From a virus, in the IMG/VR virus record IMGVR_UViG_3300047548_001285, positions 1 through 41,894 of that record: a stretch of 41,894 nucleotides of DNA; one strand, given 5' to 3'. The translations under genes and the position numbers were made by a program. The notes beneath the pieces are model-generated. The model was given only the letters and a program-made list of their open reading frames with translations, was not told where the DNA came from and ran no database searches. Shown piece by piece: positions 6,217 to 21,315 of the stretch (the first letter of the stretch is position 1; each line of letters opens with the position of its first letter).

Positions 6217-6290
6217 TCGGGATTAGTTTAACGGTAGAATAGGGGACTTTGAATCCTTTGGTCGTGGTTCGAATCCATGATCCCGAGCCA
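6217..6290 (+). tRNA. tRNA-Gln(TTG)
   Basis: Acceptor TCGGGAT pairs with ATCCCGA, discriminator G, encoded CCA, anticodon TTG at 6249-6251. Confidence 0.94.
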
Positions 6291-6303
6291 TTTTATAGCG
6301 TAA

Positions 6304-6379
6304 TGCGGGGTAGAGCAGAAGCAGCTCGCTTGGCTCATAACCAAGAGGTCGTGGTGTGCAATTCCCACCCCCGCAACCA
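6304..6379 (+). tRNA. Initiator-like tRNA-Met(CAT)
   Basis: Acceptor TGCGGGG pairs with CCCCGCA, discriminator A, encoded CCA, anticodon CAT at 6336-6338. The GGGGTAGAGCAG start, AGCTCG D-arm, GGCTCATAACC loop and AGGTCGT variable region closely follow bacterial tRNA-fMet. Differences: T1-A72 is paired rather than mismatched, the anticodon stem has two rather than three inner GC pairs, and the T-loop reads TGTGCAATT instead of TTCAAAT. Initiator identity is probable, not certain. Confidence 0.75.
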
Positions 6380-6380
6380 A

Positions 6381-6454
6381 TGGGGATTAGTTTAATGGTA
6401 GAACAGCGGACTCTGACTCCGTTGGTCGAGGTTCGAGTCCTTGATCCCCAGCCA
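6381..6454 (+). tRNA. tRNA-Gln(CTG)
   Basis: Acceptor TGGGGAT pairs with ATCCCCA, discriminator G, encoded CCA, anticodon CTG at 6413-6415. Its body is very similar to tRNA-Gln(TTG) at 6217, suggesting duplication. Confidence 0.94.
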
Positions 6455-6536
6455 AATTTTATATTGCTTTACCAAAGTCCTTAAGCTTACTATTAATTGT
6501 TACAAAAACATTTTGTAAACTAAAGAGGATAAAAAT

Positions 6537-6905
6537 ATGTTTTATAATACTGCACGACTAGTAGCAGGTCTATTCTTCCTTTACGCTGGCGTAATGAAGA
6601 TTTTTGGATTTGCCGGCGTCGTTGGTTGGATCACTTTTATGGGTTATCCAATGCCTGAACTACTTGCAGTTATTGCAATCGTAGTTGAGATTGTAGGTGG
6701 TCTAGCACTACTTGCTAACCGTTATGTTTATGCTGCAAGCTTCGTACTTGCTGGCTTTACTCTACTAGCTGGGGTAATGTTCCATCAGTTCTGGGCAGTT
6801 TCACCAGAAATGGTTACAAACGAAACTAACCATTTCCTAAAGAATATTGTTATTGCCACAGGTCTATTACTTGTTGGCGAAACTGCCAAAAAGCAGAACA
6901 ACTAA
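6537..6905 (+). CDS. DoxX-family membrane protein
   Basis: The 122-residue product has four hydrophobic helices and the DoxX-type start ARLVAGLFFLYAGVMKIFG, with the family's usual length. DoxX proteins are small inner-membrane proteins linked in some bacteria to redox balance; the role in a phage is unknown. ATG follows AGAGGAT. Upstream (6485-6535) an imperfect inverted repeat TTACAAAA...TTTTGTAA could be a regulatory site. A strong terminator follows, so it is a single-gene unit. Confidence 0.8.
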   Translation: MFYNTARLVAGLFFLYAGVMKIFGFAGVVGWITFMGYPMPELLAVIAIVVEIVGGLALLANRYVYAASFVLAGFTLLAGVMFHQFWAVSPEMVTNETNHFLKNIVIATGLLLVGETAKKQNN

Positions 6906-6912
6906 AAGTTGT

Positions 6913-6945
6913 TAGCTAGGGAATACTGTTCCCTAGCTACTTTTT
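6913..6945 (+). terminator. Rho-independent terminator
   Basis: Perfect 11 bp stem (6913-6923 with 6929-6939), five-base loop, then ACTTTTT. Ends the DoxX transcript. Confidence 0.9.
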
Positions 6946-6963
6946 AAGGTCCAATATAAACGG

Positions 6964-6991
6964 TTGACATCAATTCAAAATATGCTATATT
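6964..6991 (+). promoter_or_regulatory. Sigma-70-type promoter
   Basis: TTGACA and TATATT separated by 16 bases, 20 bases before the deaminase ATG. An early-type promoter. Confidence 0.8.
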
Positions 6992-7011
6992 GCATTAGAA
7001 ATTGAGCATTT

Positions 7012-7458
7012 ATGAGGACCAAATTGATACTTAATCGTGATCTTAAGATCATGCAGTTTACCAAGCGATTGGCTATTGACAATCCTGGTGTTAATAACCG
7101 TATGAAGTTGGCTGCTAGTCTTGTTATTAAGCGAGACATTATTAGCGTTGGCGTTAATGTAATGCGTAGTCATCCTATCCAAAAGAAGTACGGCAAAAAT
7201 GATCAAGCCATTTATTTGCATGCCGAGATTAATGCAATTGTAAACAGTCTTAACCACGTTGATAAGGACGACTTGCGTAAAGCAGATTTGTATGTTTACC
7301 GCGTAAAGAAGGATATGAATGATCCTGCCCGTAAGCATTGGGTAGATGGTATGAGTTGTCCGTGTGAAGGTTGTATGAGCGCAATTGATGCGTTTAACAT
7401 TAAGCGTGTCGTCCATAGCACTGACGTTAATAATGAATATGAAGAATTGATTTTCTAG
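7012..7458 (+). CDS. Deoxycytidylate-deaminase-type zinc deaminase
   Basis: The 148-residue protein has the zinc and proton-shuttle motif HAEINAI (H70, E72) and PCEGC (C118, C121), the hallmark of the cytidine/deoxycytidylate deaminase fold. In T4-like phages dCMP deaminase supplies dUMP for thymidylate synthesis, so that role is likely. A free nucleoside deaminase or a tRNA-editing enzyme cannot be excluded, since the allosteric dCTP site of T4 Cd is not visible. It has its own early promoter, and a second promoter starts right after its stop. Confidence 0.8.
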   Translation: MRTKLILNRDLKIMQFTKRLAIDNPGVNNRMKLAASLVIKRDIISVGVNVMRSHPIQKKYGKNDQAIYLHAEINAIVNSLNHVDKDDLRKADLYVYRVKKDMNDPARKHWVDGMSCPCEGCMSAIDAFNIKRVVHSTDVNNEYEELIF

Positions 7459-7487
7459 TTGACATAAATATCGTTGTAGTTTATATT
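7459..7487 (+). promoter_or_regulatory. Sigma-70-type promoter for tRNA/ncRNA unit
   Basis: TTGACA and TATATT separated by 17 bases. It directly follows the deaminase stop and would drive tRNA-Asn, the structured RNA and tRNA-Met. CATAAATA inside it may add a late promoter. A CGACG/CGTCG hairpin follows near 7500-7518. Confidence 0.8.
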
Positions 7488-7540
7488 ACAACAATAGACG
7501 ACGAGGCCGTAACGTCGAAAATAAAACGGTGCGAAATTAT

Positions 7541-7617
7541 TGCTCGGTAGCACAGCCGGTAGTTGCGCCTGACTGTTAATCAGGATGTCGTAGGTTCGAT
7601 CCCTACCCGAGCAGCCA
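7541..7617 (+). tRNA. tRNA-Asn(GTT), second copy
   Basis: Acceptor TGCTCGG pairs with CCGAGCA, discriminator G, encoded CCA, anticodon GTT at 7575-7577. Confidence 0.94.
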
Positions 7618-7622
7618 ATTTG

Positions 7623-7865
7623 TTGTAAGTGAAGAATATGCGGCCCCCGAGGGCTTGGTCAAGGGGGAGAAACGACAAGCCCAACTTACAATGGCGATTG
7701 TCAAGCCCTAGTGATGTGAGAGTCCACTAGGCCACCAAACGAGGATGAGGCAACGGGCGTTTGGGTATAGGTGACGGGCACCTGAAGTCTCCGTATGTTG
7801 CCTCGTCTTTCGCTCTCAACAATCTGCTTCGCGATAAGGAAGCTTGCAGGATAGCAGTAACCTGC
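7623..7865 (+). ncRNA. Structured RNA with enclosed H-type pseudoknot
   Basis: An 8 bp stem (7623-7630 with 7684-7691) encloses a pseudoknot: CCCCC 7644-7648 with GGGGG 7663-7667, and GGGCTTG 7651-7657 with CAAGCCC 7676-7682. A second CAAGCCC at 7702-7708 could compete, which would allow switching. Further hairpins: CCTAGTG/CACTAGG (7707-7713, 7725-7731), GAGGCAAC/GTTGCCTC (7747-7754, 7797-7804) around AGGTG/CACCT, and GCAGG/CCTGC (7846-7850, 7861-7865). It sits between two tRNAs. I recognise no known family. Confidence 0.6.
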
Positions 7866-7874
7866 ATACCATTT

Positions 7875-7951
7875 GCTACTGGGGAGGTTTTGGCAATTTC
7901 ACCGCTCTCATAAGGCGGGTAAAGCTGGTTCGATGCCAGCCAGTAGCACCA
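7875..7951 (+). tRNA. tRNA-Met(CAT), elongator type
   Basis: Acceptor GCTACTG pairs with CAGTAGC, discriminator A, encoded CCA, anticodon CAT at 7909-7911. It could instead be a lysidine-modified Ile tRNA; sequence alone does not settle it. Confidence 0.85.
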
Positions 7952-7985
7952 TTTTTCGCTAAATAACTGAAAGAAGGAAAAACAA

Positions 7986-8288
7986 ATGCCTTATACAGTT
8001 AAAGTTATTAGAGTTAGACCAAATTTAAGTATTCCATTCGTTGACCCTAACGATACTAATAGCGAAGGTACTCCAGTTGAAAGACAAGAGTATAGCGATG
8101 ATGGTTTAACAAATACAACATATTTCAAATACGATCAAGTTCCAAGCTTTATCTACGATTGGGCAAGTAGCTCAGCATATGAAAAGCAATATGACGCTTA
8201 TTTAAAGCAAAATAATATTACAAGACAAATTATAGTTACCAACGATACTACTGGTGAAGTAGTAAAATCATTTTATACTTGGCAATAA
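7986..8288 (+). CDS. Hypothetical protein, 100 residues
   Basis: A CTAAATA late-type element near 7961-7967 and an AGAAGGAAA ribosome site precede the ATG, so late expression is likely. The product (MPYTVKVIRVRPN...) looks like a small beta-rich protein ending KSFYTWQ, with no motif I can name. Its stop overlaps the start of the next gene by one base, so the two are probably made together. A virion-associated role is possible from late expression only. Confidence 0.65.
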   Translation: MPYTVKVIRVRPNLSIPFVDPNDTNSEGTPVERQEYSDDGLTNTTYFKYDQVPSFIYDWASSSAYEKQYDAYLKQNNITRQIIVTNDTTGEVVKSFYTWQ

Positions 8289-8527
8289 TGTTAATTAAAG
8301 AAATATTAAATGAACTAACATTTGGTGGTAGTCGCTGCACAAAAGATTGCAGCGGCCACAAAGCCGGATATCGCTGGGCATTGCGTAAAGGTGCATCCAG
8401 CGCAAATAGTAAAAGCCCTTCATTTAATAATGGTGCTGCAATAGCAGGTAACCAACAAAAAGCCGGATTAGTTAAAATACCTAAAATTAGAGACGATCGT
8501 GGTCGTTTCTCTTTCAATCCACGTTAA
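8288..8527 (+). CDS. Small head-targeted protein candidate, 79 residues
   Basis: ATG at 8288 shares a base with the previous stop. The N-terminus MLIKEILNE resembles the T4 capsid-targeting sequence (MKTYQEFIAE in IPIII), which gp21 protease cuts after (L/I)-x-E; a cut after residue 9 would fit. The rest has SRCTKDCSGHKAGYRWALRKG, which I recall from other T4-like marine phages, and a basic Gly/Asn/Lys-rich tail. An internal head protein injected with DNA is an inference. tRNA-Leu begins immediately after the stop. Confidence 0.6.
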   Translation: MLIKEILNELTFGGSRCTKDCSGHKAGYRWALRKGASSANSKSPSFNNGAAIAGNQQKAGLVKIPKIRDDRGRFSFNPR

Positions 8528-8612
<85 letters not shown>

Positions 8613-8615
8613 AAC

Positions 8616-8692
8616 GCCCTTGTAGCTCAGTGGATAAGAGCTTTGCGCTTCGAACGCAACGGTCGGGAGTTCGAATCTCTCCAAGGGCTCCA
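8616..8692 (+). tRNA. tRNA-Arg(TCG)
   Basis: Acceptor GCCCTTG pairs with CAAGGGC, encoded CCA, anticodon TCG at 8650-8652. The discriminator is T, uncommon for Arg. Confidence 0.92.
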
Positions 8693-8723
8693 TTAAAAAT
8701 AAAACAGATTACCAAAATAATAA

Positions 8724-8751
8724 TTGCAAATAAAATAAAAGACTGTATATT
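8724..8751 (+). promoter_or_regulatory. Sigma-70-type promoter of the giant RNA
   Basis: TTGCAA and TATATT separated by 16 bases in an AT-rich stretch. The predicted start is near 8758, just before the first stem of the giant RNA. Confidence 0.65.
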
Positions 8752-9256
8752 AAGAAAATAGACGCTGTAGCAAAAACGCAAGTTAAAGCAACAGCGCAGA
8801 GTTTGGGGGTTTAGCCTCGTTAGGATAAGCACAGCGATGTGCCCAAAGCTGCAAAGCCTACATAGCAGCGCATAGCAATATGTCCATCTAAACAAGCCTG
8901 AGTTAAGTTTACACGGGGTGAAATTCCCCTAAGGTAAACTCCGCCCGTAGGAAGGCGGTAAGCAGTAAGTTACTGCTATATGTCCGAAAGGATAAGTCTG
9001 GAGCCGATCGGTGAGGACGAATTGGGTTGGCGCCCAAGCATGTAGCACGCCAAAGTAACGAGTGCTTAATACTAACAGGTAGGTACCTAGTCAGACTGTT
9101 CGCGCAGAAAGGCAAAGTACCATTGCAAGAGTTGGAGGTGAAAGCCCGAGACTTAAAGCAATGCTTAGTAGCCCGCAAGGCAAAAGGCGAGAGGGTGTGT
9201 TGTATTTCTTATCTAACAAGATAGGAAGCGACTGGAGCAGCACATCACAGTAGGTT

Positions 9257-9328
9257 GCAAACATAGCTCATTTGGTAGAGCAATCGCATTTCAAGCGATC
9301 GGTAGTTGGTTCGATTCCAATTGTTGAT
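9257..9328 (+). tRNA. tRNA-Glu(TTC)-like domain inside the giant RNA
   Basis: D-arm GCTC/GAGC, anticodon stem ATCGC/GCGAT with loop ATTTCAA (TTC at 9290-9292) and T-arm GTTGG/CCAAT are all present. The acceptor has only four good pairs and no CCA. Instead, TTGCAA 9255-9260 can pair with TTGCAA 9338-9343, and GGAGCAG 9234-9240 with CTGCTCC 9347-9353, placing the domain on a long helix of the host RNA. Confidence 0.7.
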
Positions 9329-9683
9329 TATACAAAATTGCAAAGACTGCTCCGGTTGAATGTGTAAGGTGTCAAATGCTTAGGCCGCAAGGTAACTAAG
9401 CCTAACGAAACCCGCAAGGTCTAGTTAGTTCATGAAGGAAGTTTCGTAACCTCTTAGCGGAGGTGAATAGCTCGCAAGGCTAACGGGATAGATAGCGTGG
9501 AGTAGCATTCAACGACGAGTCTAATGCCTGACTCTAAAAACGGCGACACTGCTAGGATACTTGTTCACAAATGGCCTCCGTGCCCGGAACGAGTGGATGT
9601 CGGATTAAGCTAACTCGCAAGGTTAGGTCGTACGGTCCGAAGACTTAGCACTGTATGGGTAATCTCACCATACGCTAAAACAA

Positions 9684-9706
9684 AGGCGCTTAGTGCGCCT
9701 TTTTTA
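9684..9706 (+). terminator. Rho-independent terminator of the giant RNA
   Basis: AGGCGC 9684-9689 pairs with GCGCCT 9695-9700 around a five-base loop, followed by T to 9705. A GTATGG/CCATAC hairpin lies just upstream. Confidence 0.9.
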
Positions 9707-9721
9707 GTCTATAATTACAAT

Positions 9722-10810
9722 ATGAGCAACTTTTATTGTCCTAGAATAAAGAATGGTATTGCATTTACTCCTAACCGTGATTATGATGTATGCGGAGTAA
9801 GAGACCTCAATAACTCTAGCAAGCTAGGTATTAGTTCTACTAGTTTAAATGATTTCTTATCTAGCGACTATCGCAAAAATCTACTAGAGACTGCTAACAA
9901 AGGCGAATGGCCAAAAGGCTGCGAGGGCTGTTTTTGGTTAGAGAATATTTCTTTACAAAGCCCTCGCCAACAAGAGATTGCTTTAGAAAAACAAAACGGT
10001 ACACGGCCTTTAGTCCACTTTAATAGTGGATCTATCTGTGATAGCGATTGCATTATGTGTGGTCCAAGATGGAGCACTAGCATTGCTAACAGACTAAAAA
10101 AGCATCCTGCACCAAGCGATTCATATTTTACGCTGGGCAATGATGGTATAGATTTACCATCTGATAAAACTTCCCTTGAAAATTTAAAAAACGCTATTGC
10201 TATTTCCAAAAGATTAAAGGTAGTTGGGGGCGAACCTCTACTCGACAAAAAGCTATGGAAATTCTTAGACGAAGTTACGCAAGACAATAATAACTTTGAG
10301 TTTATCATTTCATCAAATGGTAACAACTATCCAAGCAAATACCAACTTGGTATCTTACAAAAGTTTGCCAAGGTCAATTTTATTTTTAGTATTGATGGCA
10401 CTGGTCCAACGTTTGAATGGATTAGACAAAACTTAAATTACAAAGCAGTAATCAAACACTATTTAAAAATAAAAGCATTAAGCAACGTAACATGTCATGT
10501 GACTGCGGTAGTACAAGCACACAATGTATTAAACTTAAAAAGCATGATGGATAGTTTTAAAACTAATATTGGTTTTAATATGCTAACACACCCTGCACTC
10601 CTATCAATTAGAAATGCCCCAAGATGGACGCTTGAACGGGCATTAGAAGAAACAAAAGGTCACTCTGATCTACAAACAATGTTAATGCTTTCACTCAAAG
10701 CAGGACCAACACATGATTTAGAAAGTTTGATTAAGCATACTAAGTATCTAAACGGGCATAGAACTCACTATTTTGACACAGACACTTGGAGTGTCCAAAA
10801 AAAGTCTTGA
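9722..10810 (+). CDS. Radical SAM protein, twitch-type
   Basis: The 362-residue product has the cluster motif ICDSDCIMCG (C106, C110, C113), a VVGGEPLLDKKLW SAM-binding segment near 205-217 and IDGT near 265. An N-terminal Cys pair (CEGC, 67-70) followed by SPRQQE matches the twitch-domain radical SAM family often annotated in marine T4-like phages; a similar protein lies at 27127. The substrate is unknown. TATAAT ends six bases before the ATG, so the message may be leaderless. It directly follows the giant RNA terminator. Confidence 0.82.
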   Translation: MSNFYCPRIKNGIAFTPNRDYDVCGVRDLNNSSKLGISSTSLNDFLSSDYRKNLLETANKGEWPKGCEGCFWLENISLQSPRQQEIALEKQNGTRPLVHFNSGSICDSDCIMCGPRWSTSIANRLKKHPAPSDSYFTLGNDGIDLPSDKTSLENLKNAIAISKRLKVVGGEPLLDKKLWKFLDEVTQDNNNFEFIISSNGNNYPSKYQLGILQKFAKVNFIFSIDGTGPTFEWIRQNLNYKAVIKHYLKIKALSNVTCHVTAVVQAHNVLNLKSMMDSFKTNIGFNMLTHPALLSIRNAPRWTLERALEETKGHSDLQTMLMLSLKAGPTHDLESLIKHTKYLNGHRTHYFDTDTWSVQKKS

Positions 10811-10856
10811 CTAGATTTTGTTAAGCTTTAAAGTTAATTTGCAAAAAGGAGTTCAA

Positions 10857-11204
10857 ATGAAATATATATTTGCATTATTATTATCGTTGTTTTTGGTAAC
10901 AGAAAGTTATGCTGCAACAGGTAAAGCAAGTTGGTATGGTCCAGGATTTCACGGACGAAAAACTGCAAGCGGCGAACGCTTTAATCAATGGGCAATGACT
11001 GCTGCTCATAGGTCTTATAAGTTTGGAACTTTAGTAAGAGTAACTTATAAAGGTAAAAGTGTTATTGTGCGTATTAATGATCGTGGCCCTTTTACTCGCG
11101 GTCGCATTATTGATTTAAGCAAGGGTGCTGCACGTAAAATTGGATGCAAAGGCGTTTGCGTTGTAAGTTTATCAGTTGTTGGTAAATCTAAAAAGAAAAG
11201 CTAA
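10857..11204 (+). CDS. RlpA-like double-psi beta-barrel protein, exported
   Basis: ATG at 10857 follows AAAGGAG. Residues 1-18 are a signal peptide ([19 protein letters not shown]), then [19 protein letters not shown] and [18 protein letters not shown], the conserved RlpA barrel motifs including the catalytic-type Asp. RlpA is a lytic transglycosylase acting on peptidoglycan lacking stem peptides. In a phage this suggests lysis or cell-wall loosening in the periplasm. No SPOR domain is present; at 115 residues it is the barrel alone. An in-frame ATG at 10818 is less likely because it lacks a ribosome site. Confidence 0.85.
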
Positions 11205-11229
11205 TGTTAGTAGTGGGGCAATGCCCCAC

Positions 11230-12285
11230 TTACCAATTCTCATCATCGTCTTTAGCTGCCATTCCTAAAAATTGCATAACTTTCTTTTCAAACTTGCTAT
11301 GCACGGCATAATATTCGCCTCTAACAGTAATTTCAAAACGTTGTTTAAAGGCGCCTTCTAAATCTTCGTCGATATAAATACCAAAGTTTTTAATTACACG
11401 ATCTGGACTTACCCAAAGCTTTAAATCTTGGAAAGCTTTAAACTCATCGCTCATTTGCGGAAGCACTGCTCTTACTGCTTCGACACTTGCGTACATAGTG
11501 TACTTACCAAAGAAACCACGTGTGTCTGCATTAAACATTAACGGATTGTATTCTTCTACATCACTTGGGTATATCCCACGCTCATTAGCAAAGTAATTAA
11601 TTACATCCTTCTTAAGTTCTTCATTTTTCCAAATGTTATCCATCAAATCTTCTACTACAGTTGGATCAATCATATCACCTAAGTTTTCACTGTTGAGGAT
11701 AAGGTCCTTAACTTTATCGCTCCAAGTGAAGTGGAATGGATCTCTTGGGAAAATAATATAAAGCTCGTGACCAAATCCCTGTGCAAAGTTTCTGTTTGTT
11801 GTGCAGAACATGCTGTTGTCGCGTCTTGCTTCCGCCCCAGCTTGCTTCAATGCATAGTTGAACGCATCAGAGTATTCAGTATTACTATCCTTTGCCATAC
11901 GCTTTTCAAATGGCTTACCATAAAATGCTGGCGCAGTTTCTTTAGTACCGCGATATAATAATTTGCCAGTTCTTTGACAAGCACTAACAGTTGTTGGGCA
12001 ATGTCTTACAATTGCTTTTAAGTAAGTCTCAAGCGGATCTTTCTTTAGTTGTCTATCATCTTGCTTAAGCTTTTCTTTAAGCTCGTCGATATACTTTTGG
12101 TACTCTTGCTTTAAATCTTCTAGTTCTTTTTCAGTACCAGGTATATTTGGAAGATAACCTAGACTATCTAATTTTTGTTCGTGATCTTCTATCTTACGTA
12201 TTTCTTTTTCAGCATCCTTGATTTTTAATTCAATTGCTCTACGTTGACCTGGTTCAAGTTTTTCAAATAGTTGACTTAATAGCAT
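11230..12285 (-). CDS. ADP-ribosyltransferase-like protein, R-S-E residues present
   Basis: The 351-residue protein has a charged coiled-coil N-terminal part (about 11-80) and a C-terminal domain with LLYRG (R112), NSMFCTT (S158) and VRGEYYAV (E324), the three-part R-S-E pattern of arginine-type ADP-ribosyltransferases such as T4 Alt. It would use NAD to modify host proteins, or RNA as T4 ModB does. The first ten residues MLLSQLFEKL(E) resemble a capsid-targeting sequence with a possible cut after E11, which suggests packaging and injection as for Alt. It follows the paralogue at 12288 by two bases on the same strand. The family call is from motifs only. Confidence 0.7.
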   Translation of the reverse strand: MLLSQLFEKLEPGQRRAIELKIKDAEKEIRKIEDHEQKLDSLGYLPNIPGTEKELEDLKQEYQKYIDELKEKLKQDDRQLKKDPLETYLKAIVRHCPTTVSACQRTGKLLYRGTKETAPAFYGKPFEKRMAKDSNTEYSDAFNYALKQAGAEARRDNSMFCTTNRNFAQGFGHELYIIFPRDPFHFTWSDKVKDLILNSENLGDMIDPTVVEDLMDNIWKNEELKKDVINYFANERGIYPSDVEEYNPLMFNADTRGFFGKYTMYASVEAVRAVLPQMSDEFKAFQDLKLWVSPDRVIKNFGIYIDEDLEGAFKQRFEITVRGEYYAVHSKFEKKVMQFLGMAAKDDDENW

Positions 12286-12287
12286 TT

Positions 12288-13328
12288 TTAATCTCTCATA
12301 CCCAATGCTCGTTCCATTTTAGTTTGCAATTTAGTTGATACTGCATAAACAGCATTCGCACTTAATGCAATATCATACCCGTAAGACATTGCGGTTTTGA
12401 TATTTTCAGTTTTTAGTTCAACACCTTCGCTGAATGATTTATATGAAACCCAATTCTTCAAGTACATAAATTGTTGCATTTCATCTGATACTAAATTAGC
12501 TTTAACGAGTTTAGTAATAGTTGCGACATTGTTTTCCCATTGATATCTTCCCATAAATCCATCAATTGTGCCAGCATAGTCTTTGCCCCATTCATATGCA
12601 AAGCCCCCTGCTGATTTAAAATCTTCAAACATTTGAGGATTGCCAATAAAATAATCCCATGCTGCTTTAATAATATCCTTATCAAATAGTTTTGCTATCC
12701 TTGCATCTGATAACATAAACTTTTCAATACCACCCATATAAAAATACTTGAAACCGTTGCGCGGGAATATGATGAATGCAGTTCTCCCATCTGTGTTAAC
12801 GTCGAATGCATCCCCACTTGCTAGTAAGCAATTATCGAAGCTTGCTATTTTAAATTTGTCTTCTAGCATCTCAGCTAGATCATCGAAGCGTCGTTCCCTG
12901 TAGTAATTTGGAACATCTATCTTTGCAGGAGGTTTACCATACAATGCTGTTTTACCTTGTGCATTTTTAAACCCAGTATATAAGAAAGTACGGTACGTCT
13001 TATAAAAATCAACTATTTCGCTACAATTTTTTCTAATGCCTGCAACAAAGTTATTGAATGAATCTTCTGGATAATCCGCTTTCAACTGATCTTTAAGTTT
13101 GTTAATTTCTCTTGTGTATGCAGCAATATATGCGTTTATTTTATCGTGTAACTCTTTTGGAAAAGAATCAATATTATAGTCAATCTCGTTACGTAGCTTA
13201 TTTTCTTTACGCTTTAACTCATCGAGTTTGGCTTCGTACTCAGATAGCTTAAGTTTAATTTCTCTAACTTCACCCGGGGATAGTTGAGCTTCATTTAATG
13301 GATCAATTATCAATTCATTGTAACGCAT
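12288..13328 (-). CDS. ADP-ribosyltransferase-like paralogue with lost catalytic residues
   Basis: The 346-residue protein shares the layout of the neighbour at 11230: the PGE-x-R-E-I-K-L-K-L coiled-coil start, a GKP segment, a FIIFPRNGF strand and a similar C-terminus. The key residues are changed: FLYTG has T118 where R is expected, NCLLAS replaces the S-x-F-x-T-T segment, and SANAVYAVS lacks the Glu. It is probably a non-catalytic relative or structural partner. The N-terminus MRYNELIIDPLNE fits a capsid-targeting sequence cut after E13. A late promoter lies four bases before the ATG, predicting a leaderless message. Confidence 0.65.
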   Translation of the reverse strand: MRYNELIIDPLNEAQLSPGEVREIKLKLSEYEAKLDELKRKENKLRNEIDYNIDSFPKELHDKINAYIAAYTREINKLKDQLKADYPEDSFNNFVAGIRKNCSEIVDFYKTYRTFLYTGFKNAQGKTALYGKPPAKIDVPNYYRERRFDDLAEMLEDKFKIASFDNCLLASGDAFDVNTDGRTAFIIFPRNGFKYFYMGGIEKFMLSDARIAKLFDKDIIKAAWDYFIGNPQMFEDFKSAGGFAYEWGKDYAGTIDGFMGRYQWENNVATITKLVKANLVSDEMQQFMYLKNWVSYKSFSEGVELKTENIKTAMSYGYDIALSANAVYAVSTKLQTKMERALGMRD

Positions 13329-13332
13329 CCAT

Positions 13333-13344
13333 TATTTATAAATA
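13333..13344. promoter_or_regulatory. Palindromic divergent late promoter
   Basis: TATTTATAAATA is a perfect palindrome carrying the TATAAATA octamer on both strands (13337-13344 plus, 13333-13340 minus). The minus octamer is 4 bases and the plus octamer 8 bases from the respective ATG. It should fire both the ART-like pair and the P-loop kinase late in infection. Confidence 0.7.
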
Positions 13345-13352
13345 ATAGCACT

Positions 13353-14024
13353 ATGCTTATTACTGAATTAACAGCCCCAGTTGAAGAGGGCATGTATGAT
13401 CCACACATTTTTAAAGCTGTTTTTATGGCTGGGAGCCCAGGTGCAGGCAAAAGCACTATCGCCAATAAGCTATTTGGTGGTACAGGATTAAAGACATTAA
13501 ATGTCGATGCATTCTGGCAGCTATACAAAGCGCAGGGTAAAGTAGGAAATTACGAGCGTTATTGGGAACTATACAAGTCCCAAGAAAAGAACTTGTTAGA
13601 TGGGCGTATTGGATTGATTATAGACGGCACTGCCAAAAACCCAGAACGTATGGCACAAGTTAAAAAAACATTAGAAGATCTTGGTTATGATACTGCGATG
13701 GTGTTTGTTAACACAAGTTTAGAAACAAGCATGAATAGAGTTGTCAATCGTGCTCGTTCAGGTGGAAAAGATACTGGTCGTGAGATTGACCCGCAGTTTG
13801 TTAAAGATACTTGGGAAAAGACACAAAAGGGGCTTGGTGCATTGCAAGCAATGTTTGGCGGTAGTTTCTTTATTGTAGATAATAATCGTAGCGAACCAAA
13901 TCTAAACTATGTTGCTAAAACAATGAATCGTTGGTTAGCAGCAAAGCCAAGCAAACCTGCTGCTAAGGAATGGATGCAGCAACAATTAGCAGCAAAGCAA
14001 GGTGCTAACGATGCTGATAAATGA
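13353..14024 (+). CDS. P-loop kinase, zeta-toxin-like
   Basis: The 223-residue protein has a Walker A motif GSPGAGKST (27-35), a VDAFW segment after strand 2, IDGTAKNPERM (Walker-B-like) and an R-rich lid (NRVVNRARSGGKDTGR). This resembles zeta-toxin/AAA_33-type small-molecule kinases, which in zeta toxins phosphorylate UDP-sugars. The substrate here is unknown. The N-terminus MLITELTAPVEE resembles a capsid-targeting sequence with a possible cut near E11 or E12, so it may be injected. It overlaps the next ART-like gene by 14 bases. Confidence 0.7.
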   Translation: MLITELTAPVEEGMYDPHIFKAVFMAGSPGAGKSTIANKLFGGTGLKTLNVDAFWQLYKAQGKVGNYERYWELYKSQEKNLLDGRIGLIIDGTAKNPERMAQVKKTLEDLGYDTAMVFVNTSLETSMNRVVNRARSGGKDTGREIDPQFVKDTWEKTQKGLGALQAMFGGSFFIVDNNRSEPNLNYVAKTMNRWLAAKPSKPAAKEWMQQQLAAKQGANDADK

Positions 14025-14823
14025 AATCCTGTTGGAAAATGACAAGTATGGTCGCACTAGAGAGATTACTGTTGCTGAATTTAAAAAACTTTTACCTCAA
14101 CTTGAGATAGCTATCAAAAAACAACAATCAGGTGACCATATCTATCGTGGTAGTCCAAATCTTGCATCACTTGTTTACAGCGACCCAACTGGTGTTGAAC
14201 GTACTTCACGCAACACATCTAACGAGCTAACATTACTTGTTAGTCATATATTACCAAGTTGGCAAAATTGGCCTAAGCGTAGCCGTAGTTTAATTTGTTC
14301 TGAGAGTTATAGTACGGCTAGTTCTTACGGCAGCGGTGGACCGTATATTGTTCTTCCAATTGGTAATCCAAACGTTGGAGTTGTCCCAGCATCAGACTTT
14401 TGGGATGCATTTTCTATGTCACCACCTACGTTCAACGATAACTTTTTAGAATTTTTTAGAACATTTAGATTAGTAGCAGAAGAAGCTAAATTAGGGATTC
14501 ATGTGCCAGCAGCCATTTCAAGCGCACAAGAAATGGTACAAGTCTTAAAAACATATGATGCAGTTTTTACGAAAATGCCACAGTTGGTTGAAAAAATGAA
14601 AGACGAGTTATCTAGTTCTCGTATATATAGAATTGGTGCAATGATTAATTTGCTAACCGCAGGTGATTGTATTTCATCCTTGGATACTTACTTTAATCCA
14701 AAATCAAATAACTTTGTATTAACACCATACAGTGATTACAGTAACCATTTAAACTATGAAGTTTGGTTTAGTGGGCCTGCTGTTCTTGTCAAACAGAAAA
14801 TGTTTAACAAACTTATGAACTAA
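14011..14823 (+). CDS. ADP-ribosyltransferase-like protein
   Basis: ATG at 14011 is inside the end of the kinase gene. The 270-residue product has HIYRGSP (R46), SRSLICSESYSTASSYG (S93) followed by YIVLP, and NYEVWFSGPAVLV near 252-264 with a candidate catalytic Glu. This is the R-S-E layout of the neighbours in a shorter form without the long coiled coil. It begins MLINEILLE, close to the capsid-targeting pattern with a cut after E9. NAD-dependent modification of a host target is the likely role, unproven. It is convergent with the Nudix gene, overlapping by 11 bases. Confidence 0.6.
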   Translation: MLINEILLENDKYGRTREITVAEFKKLLPQLEIAIKKQQSGDHIYRGSPNLASLVYSDPTGVERTSRNTSNELTLLVSHILPSWQNWPKRSRSLICSESYSTASSYGSGGPYIVLPIGNPNVGVVPASDFWDAFSMSPPTFNDNFLEFFRTFRLVAEEAKLGIHVPAAISSAQEMVQVLKTYDAVFTKMPQLVEKMKDELSSSRIYRIGAMINLLTAGDCISSLDTYFNPKSNNFVLTPYSDYSNHLNYEVWFSGPAVLVKQKMFNKLMN

Positions 14824-15205
14824 GTTGCTGGAAGAAAGCATTAATGATGGGGCGATGCTGTTCACGCCCCACTGCACTAAACTCGGTCCAACTCATCCAT
14901 TTAGTCTCTGCAATTTCCCAGCAAAACGGATTAAACGCTACTGGGTCTTTTACCTCTGCCATATAAACGGACAGCAAGTAATCAAACGTCTTAAACGTTC
15001 CCAAATGATTTACTGGTCCAATGTTTGATTGACGCAGCCCAAGCTCTTCTTCTGCTTCACGAATGGCAGCTTGCTCAATGCTTTCGCCTTCATCCACATT
15101 ACCCTTACACAGAGCAAAATGTGGACCGCCAAACATGGGGTTGCTAGAACGGCACACAAGCACCTTGCCGTTGTGATATGGAATAAATGCAGCTTTGGTT
15201 TTCAT
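14813..15205 (-). CDS. Nudix hydrolase
   Basis: The 130-residue protein holds a full Nudix box: GNVDEGESIEQAAIREAEEE and following LGL, matching G-x5-E-x7-R-E-x2-E-E-x-G-U. Nudix enzymes cleave nucleoside diphosphates linked to another group. Substrates could be ADP-ribose, NAD, capped RNA or oxidised nucleotides. Being surrounded by four ART-like genes makes an ADP-ribose or NAD-linked substrate attractive, but this is inference. It is the only minus-strand gene between 13.3 and 17.9 kb and appears self-contained. Confidence 0.85.
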   Translation of the reverse strand: MKTKAAFIPYHNGKVLVCRSSNPMFGGPHFALCKGNVDEGESIEQAAIREAEEELGLRQSNIGPVNHLGTFKTFDYLLSVYMAEVKDPVAFNPFCWEIAETKWMSWTEFSAVGREQHRPIINAFFQQLSS

Positions 15206-15255
15206 GTCAATAGTATACTACAAATAAATATACCAGCAATAGGATATTTGGTAAA

Positions 15256-16236
15256 ATGTCGTTAAAACCAGGACAAATTAAAGATCTAAAAGTAAAGTTT
15301 GAAAAGCTAAAAGGACTTGAAGCACTAGAAAAAAGGTTGAAAGCCTTGAACGATACGAGGTATCACTTTGATTCTTTGGATACAAAAACTTCTGGCGCAC
15401 TTAGTTTTGCTAAAAAAGAATTTGACGTAGTATTCAAAAAAGTCAAAGACGAAATTGACAAGACCAAACAAGAAATAATGGCATTGCAAAATACCAAAGC
15501 TGCTAAAAATCCTGCTTTAGATAAACTAGTAAAAACAATGGCAAAAGAATGCAGCCAAGCTATTACAGCTTACCGTAAAGCACAAGCTGTTTTGGTACGC
15601 GGGTCCAAAGGTAAACCAGATGCATTTATAGGTCGCAGTTGGAATAACAGAGAACCAAAAGACAGTGATTCAGATGCACAAAAGATCTATGATATTGCAC
15701 TTAAATCAATGGGCTTTAAATCACTAAGATCAAATAGTATTTTCACTACAGCAGATACAGATCAAGCAAGCGGGTATGGCGACACTTATTACATTTTCCC
15801 AAAGAATGGATTTGCATTTCATTGGACTCGAGGTAATCCTGACTTAGTGCTAGACAGCATTGGTGAAGTTTTAGATATAGGTAAAATTGAAGATATAACA
15901 GTTGATGTTGAAAATTGGTATGCGAGCAAATATAAGAAAAGCTTAAATTGGAAGTATGAAGATCCATACGATGCTGCATATGATATTGCCGGTTTTCTAA
16001 AAACACTTGCTAAACTAAAATATCCAAAAGCAAAAAGCATAACATTAAACAAACTAATTAATTTTGAGTTCATCAAGAATGAACTTGAGGCAACTAACAA
16101 AGACTTTTTAAGTGCTATAGAAAGCGGCGGTGAAGTTATGATCGCTGGTGAATATTATGCTATTAGTACCGAATCAAAATTAGGCGAATACATACTCAAT
16201 GCACTAAAAATAGAAGCAATGAATATGTATTTTTAA
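15256..16236 (+). CDS. ADP-ribosyltransferase-like paralogue without targeting peptide
   Basis: The 326-residue protein aligns in layout with the genes at 11230 and 12288. It starts MSLKPGQIKDLKVKFEKL, matching their PGQ/PGE coiled-coil segment, so it lacks the 10-17 residue N-terminal extension. Catalytic residues are kept: VLVRG (R115), NSIFTT (S161) and AGEYYAIS (E299). There is no in-frame start upstream. AGGA lies ahead of the ATG and an ATAAATA late element near 15225. It may act in the infected cell rather than be packaged. The radical SAM gene follows by six bases. Confidence 0.7.
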   Translation: MSLKPGQIKDLKVKFEKLKGLEALEKRLKALNDTRYHFDSLDTKTSGALSFAKKEFDVVFKKVKDEIDKTKQEIMALQNTKAAKNPALDKLVKTMAKECSQAITAYRKAQAVLVRGSKGKPDAFIGRSWNNREPKDSDSDAQKIYDIALKSMGFKSLRSNSIFTTADTDQASGYGDTYYIFPKNGFAFHWTRGNPDLVLDSIGEVLDIGKIEDITVDVENWYASKYKKSLNWKYEDPYDAAYDIAGFLKTLAKLKYPKAKSITLNKLINFEFIKNELEATNKDFLSAIESGGEVMIAGEYYAISTESKLGEYILNALKIEAMNMYF

Positions 16237-16242
16237 TCAAAA

Positions 16243-17778
16243 ATGAACATAAAATTTATTTTAACATGTGCCCCAGCTGATAAGATTTACATTAGTCCAG
16301 CATATTTTATGCTTCGAACTTATTTTGATTTAAATAGTTCGAATAAAGATAAGGTAAAATGGTTTAGTCCATTTTACGATCCTAATGTCAGTTTATCAGA
16401 AATTGTAAAAACAATTGTCGAAGAAGAAATTGATATACTCTGTCTAAGCGTGTTTATCTGGAACAGAGTTCAACTTCTACAATTAGCTGAAAGTATCAAA
16501 AAGATTTTACCTAACATAATAATTGTTGCAGGTGGTCCAGATTTAGATGCACATCGTAATCCAGAATTTTTCAAAGATTATCCTTATTTAGATTATGTTG
16601 TTTATGGAGACGGTGAAGAAGCATTTACAGAAATTGTAAATTCAATAATTGAAAAACGCCCCTTAACATCAGCTAACAATATTGTTACAGCTAAGGAATT
16701 TTTCCCACATAAAATTTTCCAAGACGAAGAGTTTTCTAAAATTAGTCCTTGGCTTGTACTGCGTGACGAAATCAAAGAAACAGTTGATAATTTTGGAAAA
16801 GATAATTGCATTTTATTTTGGGAAATGGCAAGAGGTTGTCCATACAAGTGTAGCTTCTGTGATTGGAACAATGGATTACATAATAAAGTCAAGCGTCGTA
16901 GATCTAATTGGAAAGAAGAAATTGATTTCTTTAGTGAAATAGGTGCAGAGGTTCGAGTTATAGATGCAAACTGGGGTATATACAAAGAAGACGTTGAGAT
17001 ACACAAATATGCAGTTGACAAACTAGTTTTTCATGCTTTTAATTTACCTAAACTTAATAAAAAAATTGCATACGATATTATGTCATTTAGCTATCAACAT
17101 TTCCCAAATGAAAAATATCGCGTTAGCTTACAAGATGTAAATGAAGAAGTATTAAAAAACATTGATAGACCTAGTATCCCATGGGATGAACACAAACAAC
17201 TATTACTTGAATTACGTGAAAAGCACCCTAATATAAGCATGGGAGGTGAAGTAATTGTTGGTTTACCTGGTCAAACTGTTGACTCTTGGATTGAAACTTT
17301 AATTGAAATAGAATCAGCGAGTATAAACACATTACACGCAAACATTTGGATGCTGTTACCAAATAGCCCTGCTTATAAAAAAGAATATCAAAAGAAATTT
17401 GAAATTACAAATGATGAATTAATTTTTATTAATAAAGAATTTAATTCAGTTGATGAAGTATATAATGCGATTGATAATGGATTACCAGGATGGTATAAAA
17501 CACGAATAGTTACAGGTATGTATACTGCTAATTTTACTGACATAATAACAATGTCTGCATTAAGTCTAGTTTATGTAGCAGTAAAGGAATATTTTAAAAA
17601 GATTCCATTCCATACTTTCATTAAAAAAATTAGAAAAAGACTTGAAGAAGAATGCCAATTAATTGCAAATGATATCATAACAACAAAAGTGTTTGGTGTC
17701 CAAAAAGATGGAAAAATAATATCATTTGATTCATACTTTTTAGACGTATATAACATTAAACAATTATTAAAAAGTTGA
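16243..17778 (+). CDS. B12-binding-type radical SAM protein
   Basis: The 511-residue protein has an N-terminal Rossmann-like part (about 50-130, with VAGGPDLDAHRNPEFF and YGDGEEAF) typical of cobalamin-binding radical SAM enzymes, then RGCPYKCSFCDW (C199, C203, C206) and GGEVIVGLPGQTVDSW. Members methylate or rearrange unreactive carbon atoms. The classical cobalamin-binding DxHxxG motif is not seen, so cobalamin may not bind. It follows the ART-like gene closely and is followed by a structured RNA. The substrate is unknown. Confidence 0.85.
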   Translation: MNIKFILTCAPADKIYISPAYFMLRTYFDLNSSNKDKVKWFSPFYDPNVSLSEIVKTIVEEEIDILCLSVFIWNRVQLLQLAESIKKILPNIIIVAGGPDLDAHRNPEFFKDYPYLDYVVYGDGEEAFTEIVNSIIEKRPLTSANNIVTAKEFFPHKIFQDEEFSKISPWLVLRDEIKETVDNFGKDNCILFWEMARGCPYKCSFCDWNNGLHNKVKRRRSNWKEEIDFFSEIGAEVRVIDANWGIYKEDVEIHKYAVDKLVFHAFNLPKLNKKIAYDIMSFSYQHFPNEKYRVSLQDVNEEVLKNIDRPSIPWDEHKQLLLELREKHPNISMGGEVIVGLPGQTVDSWIETLIEIESASINTLHANIWMLLPNSPAYKKEYQKKFEITNDELIFINKEFNSVDEVYNAIDNGLPGWYKTRIVTGMYTANFTDIITMSALSLVYVAVKEYFKKIPFHTFIKKIRKRLEEECQLIANDIITTKVFGVQKDGKIISFDSYFLDVYNIKQLLKS

Positions 17779-18482: not shown

Positions 18483-18572
18483 GGAAGGATGGGCGAGTGG
18501 TTTATGCCTGCAGTCTTGAAAACTGCCGTACTAGCGATAGTACCGTGAGTTCGAATCTCACTCCTTCCGCCA
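18483..18572 (+). tRNA. tRNA-Ser(TGA)
   Basis: Acceptor GGAAGGA pairs with TCCTTCC, discriminator G as usual for Ser, encoded CCA, class II variable arm, anticodon TGA at 18517-18519. Confidence 0.94.
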
Positions 18573-18588
18573 ACTACAGGAAAATAAT

Positions 18589-19710
18589 TTGCGTATTGAA
18601 AATGATTTAAAGTTAGACTTCTCTGATGTACTAATACGTCCAAAGAGGTCGACACTAGCAAGTCGCAGCGAAGTAAGCTTAGAGCGAGAGTTTACATTCC
18701 GTAACAGCAAACAAACTTACAAAGGCATTCCAATTATGGCTGCTAACATGGATGGTGTTGGTACATTCACTATTGCTGAGGTATTAGCAAACTATGGAAT
18801 GTTTACTTGCTTAGTTAAGCACTATCCAATTGATGATCTAGTAGAATGGATCTATACTATTGGTGGGAAAGATTGTGAAAATTGGGCATACAGTCTTGGT
18901 ATTACTGAATCAGATCTTGAAAAGTTCTTTAGTGTGTATAAGCGCACACTGGATGAAGATCATGTTAACAGGTCAATCAAATACGTGTGCATCGACGTAG
19001 CAAATGGTTACAGCGAACGATTTGTAGACTTTATTAAGAGATTTAGGGATCTTTACCCTGAGCTCGTATTAATTGCTGGTAACGTTGTCACTGGCGAAAT
19101 GACAGAGGAATTAATCTTAAATGGTGTCGATATTGTTAAAGTGGGCATTGGACCTGGATCAGTATGTACAACAAGGATTAAAACTGGGGTTGGGTATCCA
19201 CAACTATCTGCTATTATTGAGTGTGCTGATGCTGCTCATGGGCTTGCTGGCCACATTATTGCTGACGGTGGCTGTACTAGTCCTGGAGATGTAGCAAAGG
19301 CTTTTGGGGCAGGAGCAGACTTTGTTATGCTAGGTGGTATGCTTGCCGGTCATAAAGAAGGCGGCGGCAACATTACCAAGAAAATGTACCAAACAAATGA
19401 ACTTGATGAACACGGGTATCATATTAACAAGGAAGAAATGTTTGTTAAGTTCTATGGAATGAGTTCTCAAGCTGCAAATGAAAAGCATTTTGGTGGACTA
19501 AAGGATTATCGTGCAAGTGAAGGGCGCGAAGTTCTAATTCCTTTTAGGGGAAGTATAGAAAATACTGTACAAGACTTACTTGGTGGATTGCGTTCTTCTT
19601 GTACATATGTTGGTGCAAGTAAATTAAAAGAATTAAGTAAGCGCACAACATTTATTCGGGTGAATAACACTCATAATAAAGTTTATGAGAGCAAAACAAC
19701 AAGGATTTAA
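18589..19710 (+). CDS. guaC: GMP reductase
   Basis: The 373-residue protein follows the IMPDH/GMPR barrel. It opens [17 protein letters not shown], has the active-site loop [11 protein letters not shown] with its catalytic Cys, [19 protein letters not shown], the phosphate-binding DGGC and GGMLAGH segments, YRASEGREV and [17 protein letters not shown] rather than IMPDH is indicated by the missing CBS domains and by these sequences. It converts GMP to IMP with NADPH, feeding purine salvage. TTG at 18589 follows CAGGAAAA and gives the expected N-terminus. It is rare in phages; host takeover of guanine nucleotide pools is inferred. Confidence 0.92.
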
Positions 19711-19712
19711 AA

Positions 19713-20345
19713 ATGTCAAACTTTATCTTTGATCAAAGCGTAGTTAGTGATCCGCAATTTGTAGATGTAAAACACGTAATAGATTCGCTTTGGCATGGAG
19801 GCATTATTCAACGAGGCGCAGGATATTGCTTAGGGATGAGCGATATTGTGCAAAAAATGCTAGAGGCACGTGGAGTAAAATCTGAAATCGTTGAATGTAA
19901 ATTGATCGTTTTGAAAAAAGATCCACCAAGTATGTTTTTAATTGGTCAAAACAAAGTTTTTACAGAAGGAAACATAAATTCTGATCAAACAAAAATTGAT
20001 ACTCACGTAGTTTTGATTACTAAAACTAAAATACCAATGTTAATTGATACTAGCATCGGACATGTTAGTAAAAATGTGCCTTACATATGTGGTCCTGTAA
20101 ACGGGAAAGAACAGACATTAGCTGAATATAAAATAGATGGGGCCGAGTGGGTATACTTAAAAAAGCCTGTTGAAGTATTACCTAACCTACATCAAAAAAG
20201 TTTACTTGAACGTATACGCACAGATTTTGAGGTTGCAAATACATTAAAGTTAATGAAATATATTGTAATTGCGTTAATTTGTATGAGTTTGATTAATTTT
20301 ACTTTAAACATAACAACAGTTGTACTAAAGTTGATGTATCCTTAA
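19713..20345 (+). CDS. Transglutaminase-like cysteine protein with membrane tail
   Basis: The 210-residue protein has GYCLGMSDIVQKMLEARG (C39), THVVL (H98) and LIDTS (D112), in the order and spacing of the Cys-His-Asp triad of the transglutaminase/NlpC-like superfamily. A hydrophobic helix (about 182-203, YIVIALICMSLINFTLNI) near the C-terminus would anchor it in the membrane. Activity could be peptide cleavage or crosslinking. It follows GMP reductase by two bases and so shares its transcript. Family placement is tentative. Confidence 0.55.
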   Translation: MSNFIFDQSVVSDPQFVDVKHVIDSLWHGGIIQRGAGYCLGMSDIVQKMLEARGVKSEIVECKLIVLKKDPPSMFLIGQNKVFTEGNINSDQTKIDTHVVLITKTKIPMLIDTSIGHVSKNVPYICGPVNGKEQTLAEYKIDGAEWVYLKKPVEVLPNLHQKSLLERIRTDFEVANTLKLMKYIVIALICMSLINFTLNITTVVLKLMYP

Positions 20346-21226
20346 AAATTTGGTATAATAAAATCAGCAGAATAAAAGTTACTATTTCGGTTATATTCTA
20401 TTCTAATTTTTTGATCTAAACTAACACCAACTCGAGTTAAAGCTTTAAAATACAAATTTGAAGAACACAGTGAAATATAGTCTAAACTTATATCAGCTTT
20501 TTCTTTACTAAAGACGCTTACATGATAGTTATGGTAATCATCAGTGATCCTGCCATCTGTTGTGTAAGCGTTACCTAAAAATTTTACTCTTGTTTGCGCC
20601 TTCATGGGCATAGAATTTTCTAGTAACTCTATTGAATAATTGTCAATACTACTCCATTTTCCTATAGTATCAATGGACTCAGCATAATGTATTTGGGGTA
20701 CGTTGTTTATTAAATCTAGTATAATATGAAAATTATGGCTTGAAGGATCAATGCGTCTTAATATCCAATATAGTTCTTGAGTAGTGCCTATTTTATTTCC
20801 AATACTGCTAGGACCTAACAATAACATATGTGCATTAGTTAAATTTAAAACGTCAAATGCAATAATTTTCTTTTGACCTTTTGTTATGTAAAAGTGATCG
20901 TTATTGACACTGTTTAAAGAAAAAACTGTTTTAATAGGATTATAGATAAAACTATCTATTAAAAGTTTTACAGGGTAAATTGATTTTATATCTTTTTTAA
21001 ATAATTCGTAGAACGTTCTTATAAATTCTTTTTTATATACTCCTTTACTTGTTTGAGCATGATCAAAAAAATTACCAAATGAACTTGGAAAGTAAAAGAT
21101 ATGATCAAAAATATTGCCATAAAAATAATGTAAGTCGAGATTAAATTCCTGTTTTAAAAAATTTATGAGATCGTCATTAGGATAATCTCTAAATCCATCT
21201 GCATAAAGCTTAAATAATTTAGCCAT
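20342..21226 (-). CDS. Hypothetical protein, 294 residues
   Basis: The product (MAKLFKLYADGFRDYP...) is rich in Phe, Tyr, Asn and Asp, and I recognise no motif, signal peptide or membrane helix. It is convergent with the preceding gene, overlapping by four bases. An AATAAATA late element ends four bases before the ATG, predicting a leaderless message, and that element touches the first base of tRNA-Arg on the other strand. Confidence 0.65.
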   Translation of the reverse strand: MAKLFKLYADGFRDYPNDDLINFLKQEFNLDLHYFYGNIFDHIFYFPSSFGNFFDHAQTSKGVYKKEFIRTFYELFKKDIKSIYPVKLLIDSFIYNPIKTVFSLNSVNNDHFYITKGQKKIIAFDVLNLTNAHMLLLGPSSIGNKIGTTQELYWILRRIDPSSHNFHIILDLINNVPQIHYAESIDTIGKWSSIDNYSIELLENSMPMKAQTRVKFLGNAYTTDGRITDDYHNYHVSVFSKEKADISLDYISLCSSNLYFKALTRVGVSLDQKIRIEYNRNSNFYSADFIIPNF

Positions 21227-21230
21227 AAAA

Positions 21231-21238
21231 TATTTATT
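21231..21238 (-). promoter_or_regulatory. Late promoter variant, leaderless arrangement
   Basis: AATAAATA on the minus strand, four bases before the ATG at 21226. Confidence 0.5.

Positions 21239-21315
<77 letters not shown>

What the first reader, a model, noticed from the sequence alone, without database searches (positions are those of the whole stretch)
11230..16236. Four ART-like paralogues, one of which has lost its active-site residues
Genes at 11230, 14011 and 15256 keep R, S and E positions, while the one at 12288 has T for R, no S-x-F-x-T/S and no Glu. A tandem family with one dead member is typical of fast-evolving effectors, decoys or hetero-oligomer partners.
Basis: partly seen in the sequence, partly recalled or inferred. 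Interest (0 to 1): 0.7.

Follow-up and report, generated by a model that had tools for sequence, protein, structure and literature searches.

The report
Jumbo-phage ADP-ribosyltransferase-like array, one dead
This giant-phage fragment carries four related genes that look like enzymes for attaching ADP-ribose to host molecules; one has lost its catalytic residues but is kept intact in a related phage, and most carry a short start sequence like the tag that phage T4 uses to pack proteins into its head for injection, so the set probably reprograms the bacterium at the moment of infection.

Summary
Four homologous genes lie at 11230-12285(-), 12288-13328(-), 14011-14823(+) and 15256-16236(+). Three keep R, S and E. 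The second has T118/C167/D319 in their place. They belong to a large family that Pfam and PHROGs do not name. 146 members from jumbo-phage contigs keep R in 135, S in 132 and E in 134 of the 139 that reach that column. Only gene 12288 and its orthologue (L003) have lost all three. That pair has intact frames and arose by duplication from gene 11230 (100/94 support) before the two phages split. So it is a retained pseudoenzyme, not a decaying gene. ADP-ribosyltransferase (ART) identity is likely, not proven: motifs and strand order fit, but fold matches to ARTs are weak and PDB gave none. Zeta-type kinases that neighbour or are fused to these genes share it. Best reading: head-packaged, injected ART-like effectors, with 12288 a non-catalytic partner of 11230.

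The parts
11230..12285 (-). ART-like protein 1 (351 aa): tag MLLSQLFE, two-helix hairpin (12-77), catalytic-type core with R112, S158, E318
12288..13328 (-). ART-like protein 2 (346 aa), pseudoenzyme: T118, C167, D319 replace R, S, E; family-invariant R155 and D194 also lost; tag MRYNELIIDPLNE and hairpin kept
13353..14024 (+). Zeta-toxin/AAA_33-type P-loop kinase with tag MLITELTAPVEEG; neighbours or is fused to ART-like domains in other phages
14011..14823 (+). ART-like protein 3 (270 aa), second subfamily (phrog_12810 type): tag MLINEILLE, R46, S93, E250; overlaps the kinase gene by 14 bases
14813..15205 (-). Nudix hydrolase (no tag); substrate not predictable from family scores
15256..16236 (+). 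ART-like protein 4 (326 aa): R115, S161, E293, helical N-terminal region, no tag (starts MSLKPGQ)
12262..12285 (-). Codons of tag MLLSQLFE of protein 1
13287..13328 (-). Codons of tag MRYNELIIDPLNEA of protein 2
14011..14037 (+). Codons of tag MLINEILLE of protein 3
13353..13388 (+). Codons of tag MLITELTAPVEE of the kinase
12975..12977 (-). Thr118 codon, at the catalytic Arg position
12828..12830 (-). Cys167 codon, at the catalytic Ser position
12372..12374 (-). Asp319 codon, at the catalytic Glu position

Best explanation
The block is a set of injected host-takeover proteins of a jumbo phage. (1) Shown: four homologous proteins; three keep a conserved R, S and E, as in R-S-E mono-ADP-ribosyltransferases; protein 2 and its orthologue lack all three but are retained with intact frames. 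(2) Likely: the core is an ADP-ribosyltransferase-type domain that transfers ADP-ribose, or NAD-capped RNA as T4 ModB does, from NAD to host targets. (3) Likely: the short N-terminal tag (M-[KR]-x-x-[EQ]-hydrophobic, often running into [LI]-x-E) is a capsid-targeting propeptide of the T4 internal-protein kind, so the tagged ART-like proteins and the tagged zeta-type kinase are packed in the head, probably trimmed by the prohead protease, and ejected with the DNA. (4) Inferred: protein 2 no longer catalyses. It is kept as a structural or regulatory partner, most likely a hetero-oligomer with its sister protein 1 through the N-terminal helical hairpin, or as a target-binding decoy. (5) Inferred: untagged protein 4 acts inside the cell after its synthesis rather than from the virion.
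For: R/S/E conservation over 146 diverse members, with R-S spacing of 45-70 (median 47) and S-E of at least 68 residues. AF2 model of protein 1 (pLDDT 88.4): R112 lies in strand 111-114, S158 just before strand 159-162, E318 just before strand 319-322, the order expected of an ART core. In BFVD, after the family itself, weak matches include two PARP-catalytic-domain proteins and three PolyVal ARTs (ranks 28, 29, 31, 40, 49). T4 ModB beats 999 of 1000 shuffles against the family profile; its best segment includes the LYRG of its catalytic R73. Tag: 89/137 family members against 39/678 other genes, p=4e-52; a T4-derived pattern (made to fit ipII, ipIII and Alt) gives p=2e-7 for the family and 2e-6 for the kinases. 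The tag also occurs on a Pfam-recognised ART-PolyVal protein (L054 995-1855), a weaker ART-PolyVal match in Atu_ph07 and a weak PARP match. The Atu_ph07 array is CDS 53-63, inside the CDS 31-76 cluster where 29 proteins were found in virions by mass spectrometry (PMC6102473). Kinase and ART-like domains are fused in both orders (Atu_ph07, L079) and adjacent in window, L003, L051, L105. In protein 2 versus its orthologue identity falls in the core and E-motif (0.42, 0.29; protein 1 has 0.67, 0.61) but the tag (0.75) and hairpin (0.48) stay near protein 1's values.
Against: No ART among Foldseek PDB matches; no Pfam or NCBIfam ART match for members or consensus sequences; hhalign finds nothing convincing against T4 Alt or ModA/ModB. 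BFVD matches to ARTs are individually not significant (E 0.12 to 7). Which of the 29 Atu_ph07 virion proteins are ART-like could not be read, as the supplementary table was not available. The tag was described on the same data on which it was counted. Protein 4 has no tag. No target or activity is known.
Confidence: 0.55

Rival explanations
1. ART-like enzymes made during infection and acting in the cytoplasm like T4 ModA/ModB. The N-terminal 'tag' is only a conserved first element of the proteins, or a motif for another purpose such as binding another phage protein.
For: Protein 4 and several relatives (L088, L098, L099, L105) lack the tag and start near an LKPG/LQPG motif. T4 ModA and ModB are not packaged (literature). 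No packaging data exist for this phage.
Against: The tag sits on unrelated folds: zeta-type kinases, ART-PolyVal, a nucleotidyltransferase-like protein. It resembles T4 internal-protein propeptides, and the Atu_ph07 array lies in the virion-protein cluster.
Confidence: 0.25
2. Protein 2 is a neutral leftover of duplication on its way to loss, without function.
For: Highest dN of the nine ortholog pairs (0.52) and a loosened former active-site region.
Against: Frame intact in both phages at about 41% identity with near-saturated synonymous sites (pN/pS 0.56). It stays next to protein 1 in both; the tag and hairpin are conserved.
Confidence: 0.1
3. Protein 2 keeps NAD-linked or other catalysis with a non-canonical site (Thr/Cys/Asp).
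For: The Glu column is Asp in both orthologues, and a few R- and S-bearing relatives also have Asp there.
Against: Arg is T/S and Ser is C/A, so the site is not even conserved between the two orthologues. Invariant R155, D194 and G323 are lost as well.
Confidence: 0.08
4. The fold is not an ART; the R/S/E trio belongs to an unrelated phage enzyme or structural family.
For: No PDB fold match and no curated ART family match.
Against: Trio, spacing, strand order and the presence of ARTs among weak BFVD matches; T4 ModB segment score.
Confidence: 0.15

Closest known systems
T4 Alt (head-packaged, injected ADP-ribosyltransferase)
   Same: Short N-terminal propeptide of the same style (MELITELFDE); R, S and E motifs; proposed delivery with the DNA
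   Different: No profile similarity; Alt is one 682-aa protein, whereas this family forms arrays of 190-500 aa proteins
T4 ModA/ModB
   Same: LYRG at the catalytic Arg (R73 in ModB, PMC10468400) and an ExE-W-M-I-P-I-G-K-Y motif resembling E-I-M-I-x-G-x-Y-Y
   Different: R-S spacing differs; no significant profile match; ModA and ModB have no such tag
PHROG families 11975, 12810 and 15932 (unknown function), including the Atu_ph07 array AUZ94865-AUZ94875
   Same: 72, 51 and 50 of 74 members match them; Atu_ph07 has 13 matches
   Different: Not annotated as ARTs; no dead member like protein 2 was found there
Multi-ART jumbo phages such as Bacillus phage G (at least 10 ARTs, PMC9503650)
   Same: Many ART-type genes in one jumbo phage
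   Different: Whether phage G's ARTs belong to this family was not tested
T4 internal proteins IPI-IPIII and their capsid targeting sequences
   Same: 10-residue N-terminal signal ending in L/I-x-E shared by unrelated cargo (PMC9026906; ipII and ipIII MKTYQEFIAE)
   Different: Packaging and cleavage not shown here

Membership tests
R-S-E ADP-ribosyltransferase superfamily | Conserved Arg (first strand), Ser and Glu (penultimate strands) | tested here: met
   Met for proteins 1, 3 and 4 and the family; lost in protein 2
R-S-E ADP-ribosyltransferase superfamily | Split beta-sheet ART fold | tested here: inconclusive
   Strand order fits; weak BFVD matches to PARP/PolyVal ARTs; no PDB match with the whole model; core alone not modelled
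R-S-E ADP-ribosyltransferase superfamily | NAD-dependent transferase activity | not testable with these tools
   Needs biochemistry
T4 Alt family | Sequence or profile homology to Alt catalytic region | tested here: not met
   hhalign A8 and A3 against the Alt alignment: probability 0.3%
T4 ModA/ModB family | Sequence or profile homology | tested here: inconclusive
   Only the LYRG region aligns, probability 3%, P=0.016; ModB above 999/1000 shuffles, ModA not
T4-type capsid targeting sequence | Short N-terminal motif shared by otherwise unrelated cargo | tested here: met
T4-type capsid targeting sequence | Prohead-protease site [LI]-x-E near the N-terminus | tested here: inconclusive
   47% of family against 22% of background (p=2e-8), but a weak motif and not universal
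T4-type capsid targeting sequence | Presence of the protein in virions | not tested
   Atu_ph07 array lies in a cluster with 29 virion proteins; identities not readable here
PHROG 11975 / 12810 | HMM match | tested here: met
   Proteins 1 and 4 to 11975 (2e-23, 9e-30); protein 3 to 12810 (6e-34); protein 2 matches neither at E<=1, though it is found by family profiles
Zeta toxin / AAA_33 kinase (13353-14024) | HMM match over the curated cut-off | tested here: met
   PF06414 2.4e-15, 56.9 bits against cut-off 22.3

The most novel reading that the evidence does not exclude
Jumbo phages carry an unrecognised ART superfamily branch in tandem arrays (up to 18 matches per contig), sent into the host by a modular head-packaging tag shared with zeta-type kinases. 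Some phages keep a catalytically dead member as an obligate partner or guide for an active sister, so that ADP-ribosylation is carried out by hetero-oligomers, and the fused or adjacent kinase works on the same substrate or on NAD.
Probability: 0.3. Interest if true: 0.8.

Novelty: new variant of a known kind. Interest (0 to 1): 0.62.

Why it matters
Injected ARTs of T4 (Alt) and ModB reshape host transcription and translation, yet they are studied in one phage group. This family is wide among jumbo phages, is annotated 'unknown function' in PHROGs, and is easy to recognise by three residues and an N-terminal tag. It offers a list of candidate injected effectors, including kinases, that can be checked against existing virion proteomes, and a clear case of a conserved pseudo-ART beside its active sister.

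Tried and rejected
Pfam, NCBIfam, PADLOC and PDB sequence searches gave no ART assignment; LmuB matches of protein 2 cover mainly its coiled N-terminus and were rejected. Foldseek PDB and VIA-align matches lie mainly in the helical hairpin 1-87 (SerRS arm, SMC, RNA polymerase) and were rejected as coiled-coil likeness; ARTs are absent from those lists, which does not exclude the fold. hhalign against T4 Alt and ModA/ModB was near background, as was the kinase control. A regular-expression count of R/S/E was too strict and was replaced by alignment columns. Two alignment scans of viral contigs failed for lack of conserved stretches; A6 found no relative; genome contigs gave none, so no evidence of cellular homologues was found at that sensitivity. 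A reading of the kinase as an NAD-salvage (NadR-like) kinase was considered, because L036 fuses it to a nucleotidyltransferase-like domain and L065/L071 place a nucleotidyltransferase-like protein by ART-like genes, but family scores do not support it.
Full report
Setting. The window is a 41.9-kb virus record with 27 tRNA genes. Its nearest relative found is IMGVR_UViG_3300044624_003294 (L003), which carries the orthologues of proteins 1, 2, the kinase, the Nudix gene and protein 4 in the same order and orientation; it lacks protein 3 there but has a relative of it at 10228-11067.

Observation. Protein 1 (11230) has R112, S158, E318; protein 3 (14011) R46, S93, E250; protein 4 (15256) R115, S161, E293; protein 2 (12288) has T118, C167 and D319 in these columns. 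Proteins 1, 2 and 4 are plain homologues. Protein 3 is a member of a second subfamily, linked through profiles. The profile comparison matches A3 to the A3-type second domain of AUZ94866, which lies in A5, and so is not independent evidence.

The family. HMMs from window, L003 and Agrobacterium phage Atu_ph07 proteins found 148 distinct frames of 150 aa or more (146 after leaving out the IMG/VR copies of Atu_ph07) in IMG/VR and phage loci. R is kept in 135 of 146, S in 132 of 146 and E in 134 of 139. All three are kept in 115 of 139, two in 20, one in 2, and none in 2, which are protein 2 and its L003 orthologue. Arrays are common: in eight records searched the matches number 13 (Atu_ph07), 18, 14, 9, 7, 5, 5 and 4 (a few of these are pieces of one frame or second domains of one protein). 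PHROGs put members in families 11975, 12810 and 15932, all of unknown function; Pfam names none as ART.

Is it an ART? The AF2 model of protein 1 (74-row alignment, pLDDT 88.4, pTM 0.81) has a two-helix hairpin (12-77) and a mixed core with R112 in strand 111-114, S158 just before 159-162, and E318 just before 319-322 followed by 325-329. Protein 2 keeps the same element order at lower confidence (81.7). Foldseek against PDB has no ART match, and VIA-align rows cover almost only the hairpin. Against BFVD the 25 matches with E<=0.001 are mostly unnamed jumbo-phage proteins, several from Atu_ph07. Weaker ones include PARP-domain and PolyVal ART proteins at ranks 28, 29, 31, 40 and 49 for protein 1 and two PolyVal ARTs for protein 2. 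Each is weak alone; such names should be rare in the library, which is my judgement and not measured. T4 ModB scores above 999 of 1000 shuffles with the family profile, its best segment including LYRG, whose R73 is catalytic in ModB (PMC10468400). T4 Alt shows no profile similarity. I put the ART fold at about 0.85.

Protein 2. In the tree proteins 1 and 2 with their L003 orthologues form a clade with 100/94 support, each pair 100/99, so the duplication and the loss precede the split of the two phages (the bootstrap had not fully settled). Residues nearly invariant in the family and changed in both protein-2 orthologues include R112, R155 (in a deleted stretch), S158, D194, E318 (to D) and G323; C96, G113, N157, G172, F179, P180, F184 and A327 stay in both. 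Its frame is intact in both phages, pN/pS is 0.56 against 0.46 for protein 1, with synonymous sites near saturation, and dN is the highest of nine pairs. Compared with protein 1, identity drops in the core (0.42 against 0.67) and E-motif region (0.29 against 0.61) but not in the tag (0.75 against 0.70) and little in the hairpin (0.48 against 0.56). This pattern suggests that constraint has moved from the catalytic site to the N-terminal part. Adjacent position 2 bases from protein 1 and the same strand suggest joint expression. A hetero-oligomer is therefore my preferred role, unproven.

The tag. Proteins 1-3 and the kinase begin MLLSQLFE, MRYNELIIDPLNE, MLINEILLE and MLITELTAPVEE. In the family 89 of 137 starts match M[KRIL]xx[EQ][ILFV], against 39 of 678 other genes in the same loci (p=4e-52) and 0.8% of internal Met. 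This pattern was written after looking at the family, so its p-value is descriptive. A pattern modelled on T4 internal proteins (it accepts ipII, ipIII and Alt, not ipI) gives 29/137 against 40/664 (p=2e-7), and 9 of 20 zeta-type kinases (p=2e-6). T4 propeptides are known head-targeting signals, cleaved after L/I-x-E (PMC9026906). Other tagged proteins include an ART-PolyVal protein over the Pfam cut-off, a weaker ART-PolyVal match in Atu_ph07, a weak PARP match and a nucleotidyltransferase-like protein whose start MLLSQLFEDK shares its first eight residues with protein 1. In Atu_ph07 the array is CDS 53-63 by count from the first annotated CDS, inside CDS 31-76, a cluster with 29 proteins detected in virions (PMC6102473). 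The individual identities were not readable here. By my gene calls tagged starts are 13 of 50 in that region against 28 of 759 elsewhere, but ten of the 13 are family members.

The kinase. P0005 is a Zeta_toxin/AAA_33 P-loop protein. It is fused behind an ART-like domain in Atu_ph07 AUZ94865, before one in L079, and adjacent to ART-like genes in window, L003, L051 and L105. Opposite fusion orders argue for a real functional link; its substrate is unknown.

Verdict. The finding is real, and the dead member is a conserved pseudoenzyme. The likely context is a set of head-packaged, injected ART-like effectors with a kinase, a new variant of the known T4 Alt theme.

Noticed in passing
window 28319-28888 (-): Kinase-like protein (weak APH match) that starts MKVNELVGYK and so may carry the same tag.
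   Followed up: partly
window 8279-8527 (+): Small basic protein with an inner ATG giving MLIKEILNELTFGGS, tag-like, and reminiscent of T4 small internal proteins.
   Followed up: no
L004 1485-3821 (Atu_ph07 AUZ94865) and L134 10507-11388: ART-like + zeta kinase + two repeat domains in one protein; inner repeats are preceded by L[TN]ELFDT, close to the start MLLSELFDT of a separate gene. It may be a pre-protein cut into several cargo pieces.
   Followed up: partly
L036 7470-8951, L065 4929-5570, L071 1-1374: Nucleotidyltransferase-like domains fused to the zeta-type kinase (L036), or tagged and beside or fused to ART-like proteins (L065, L071).
   Followed up: partly
window 9722-10810 and 16243-17778: Two radical-SAM-like genes; in L003 both lie together after the protein 4 orthologue, so the block has been rearranged.
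   Followed up: no
window 490-9329 and 18483-24666: 27 tRNA genes, including repeats of Tyr, Pro, Lys, Asn, Glu, Gln, Arg and Thr.
   Followed up: no
window 10818-11204 (+): RlpA-like (double-psi barrel type) protein next to protein 1, conserved in L003 1541-1927; assigned by eye.
   Followed up: no
L049, L052: Several members have Gly or Ala instead of the conserved Ser while keeping Arg and Glu, so partly altered sites are found elsewhere in the family (20 of 139 keep two of three).
   Followed up: partly
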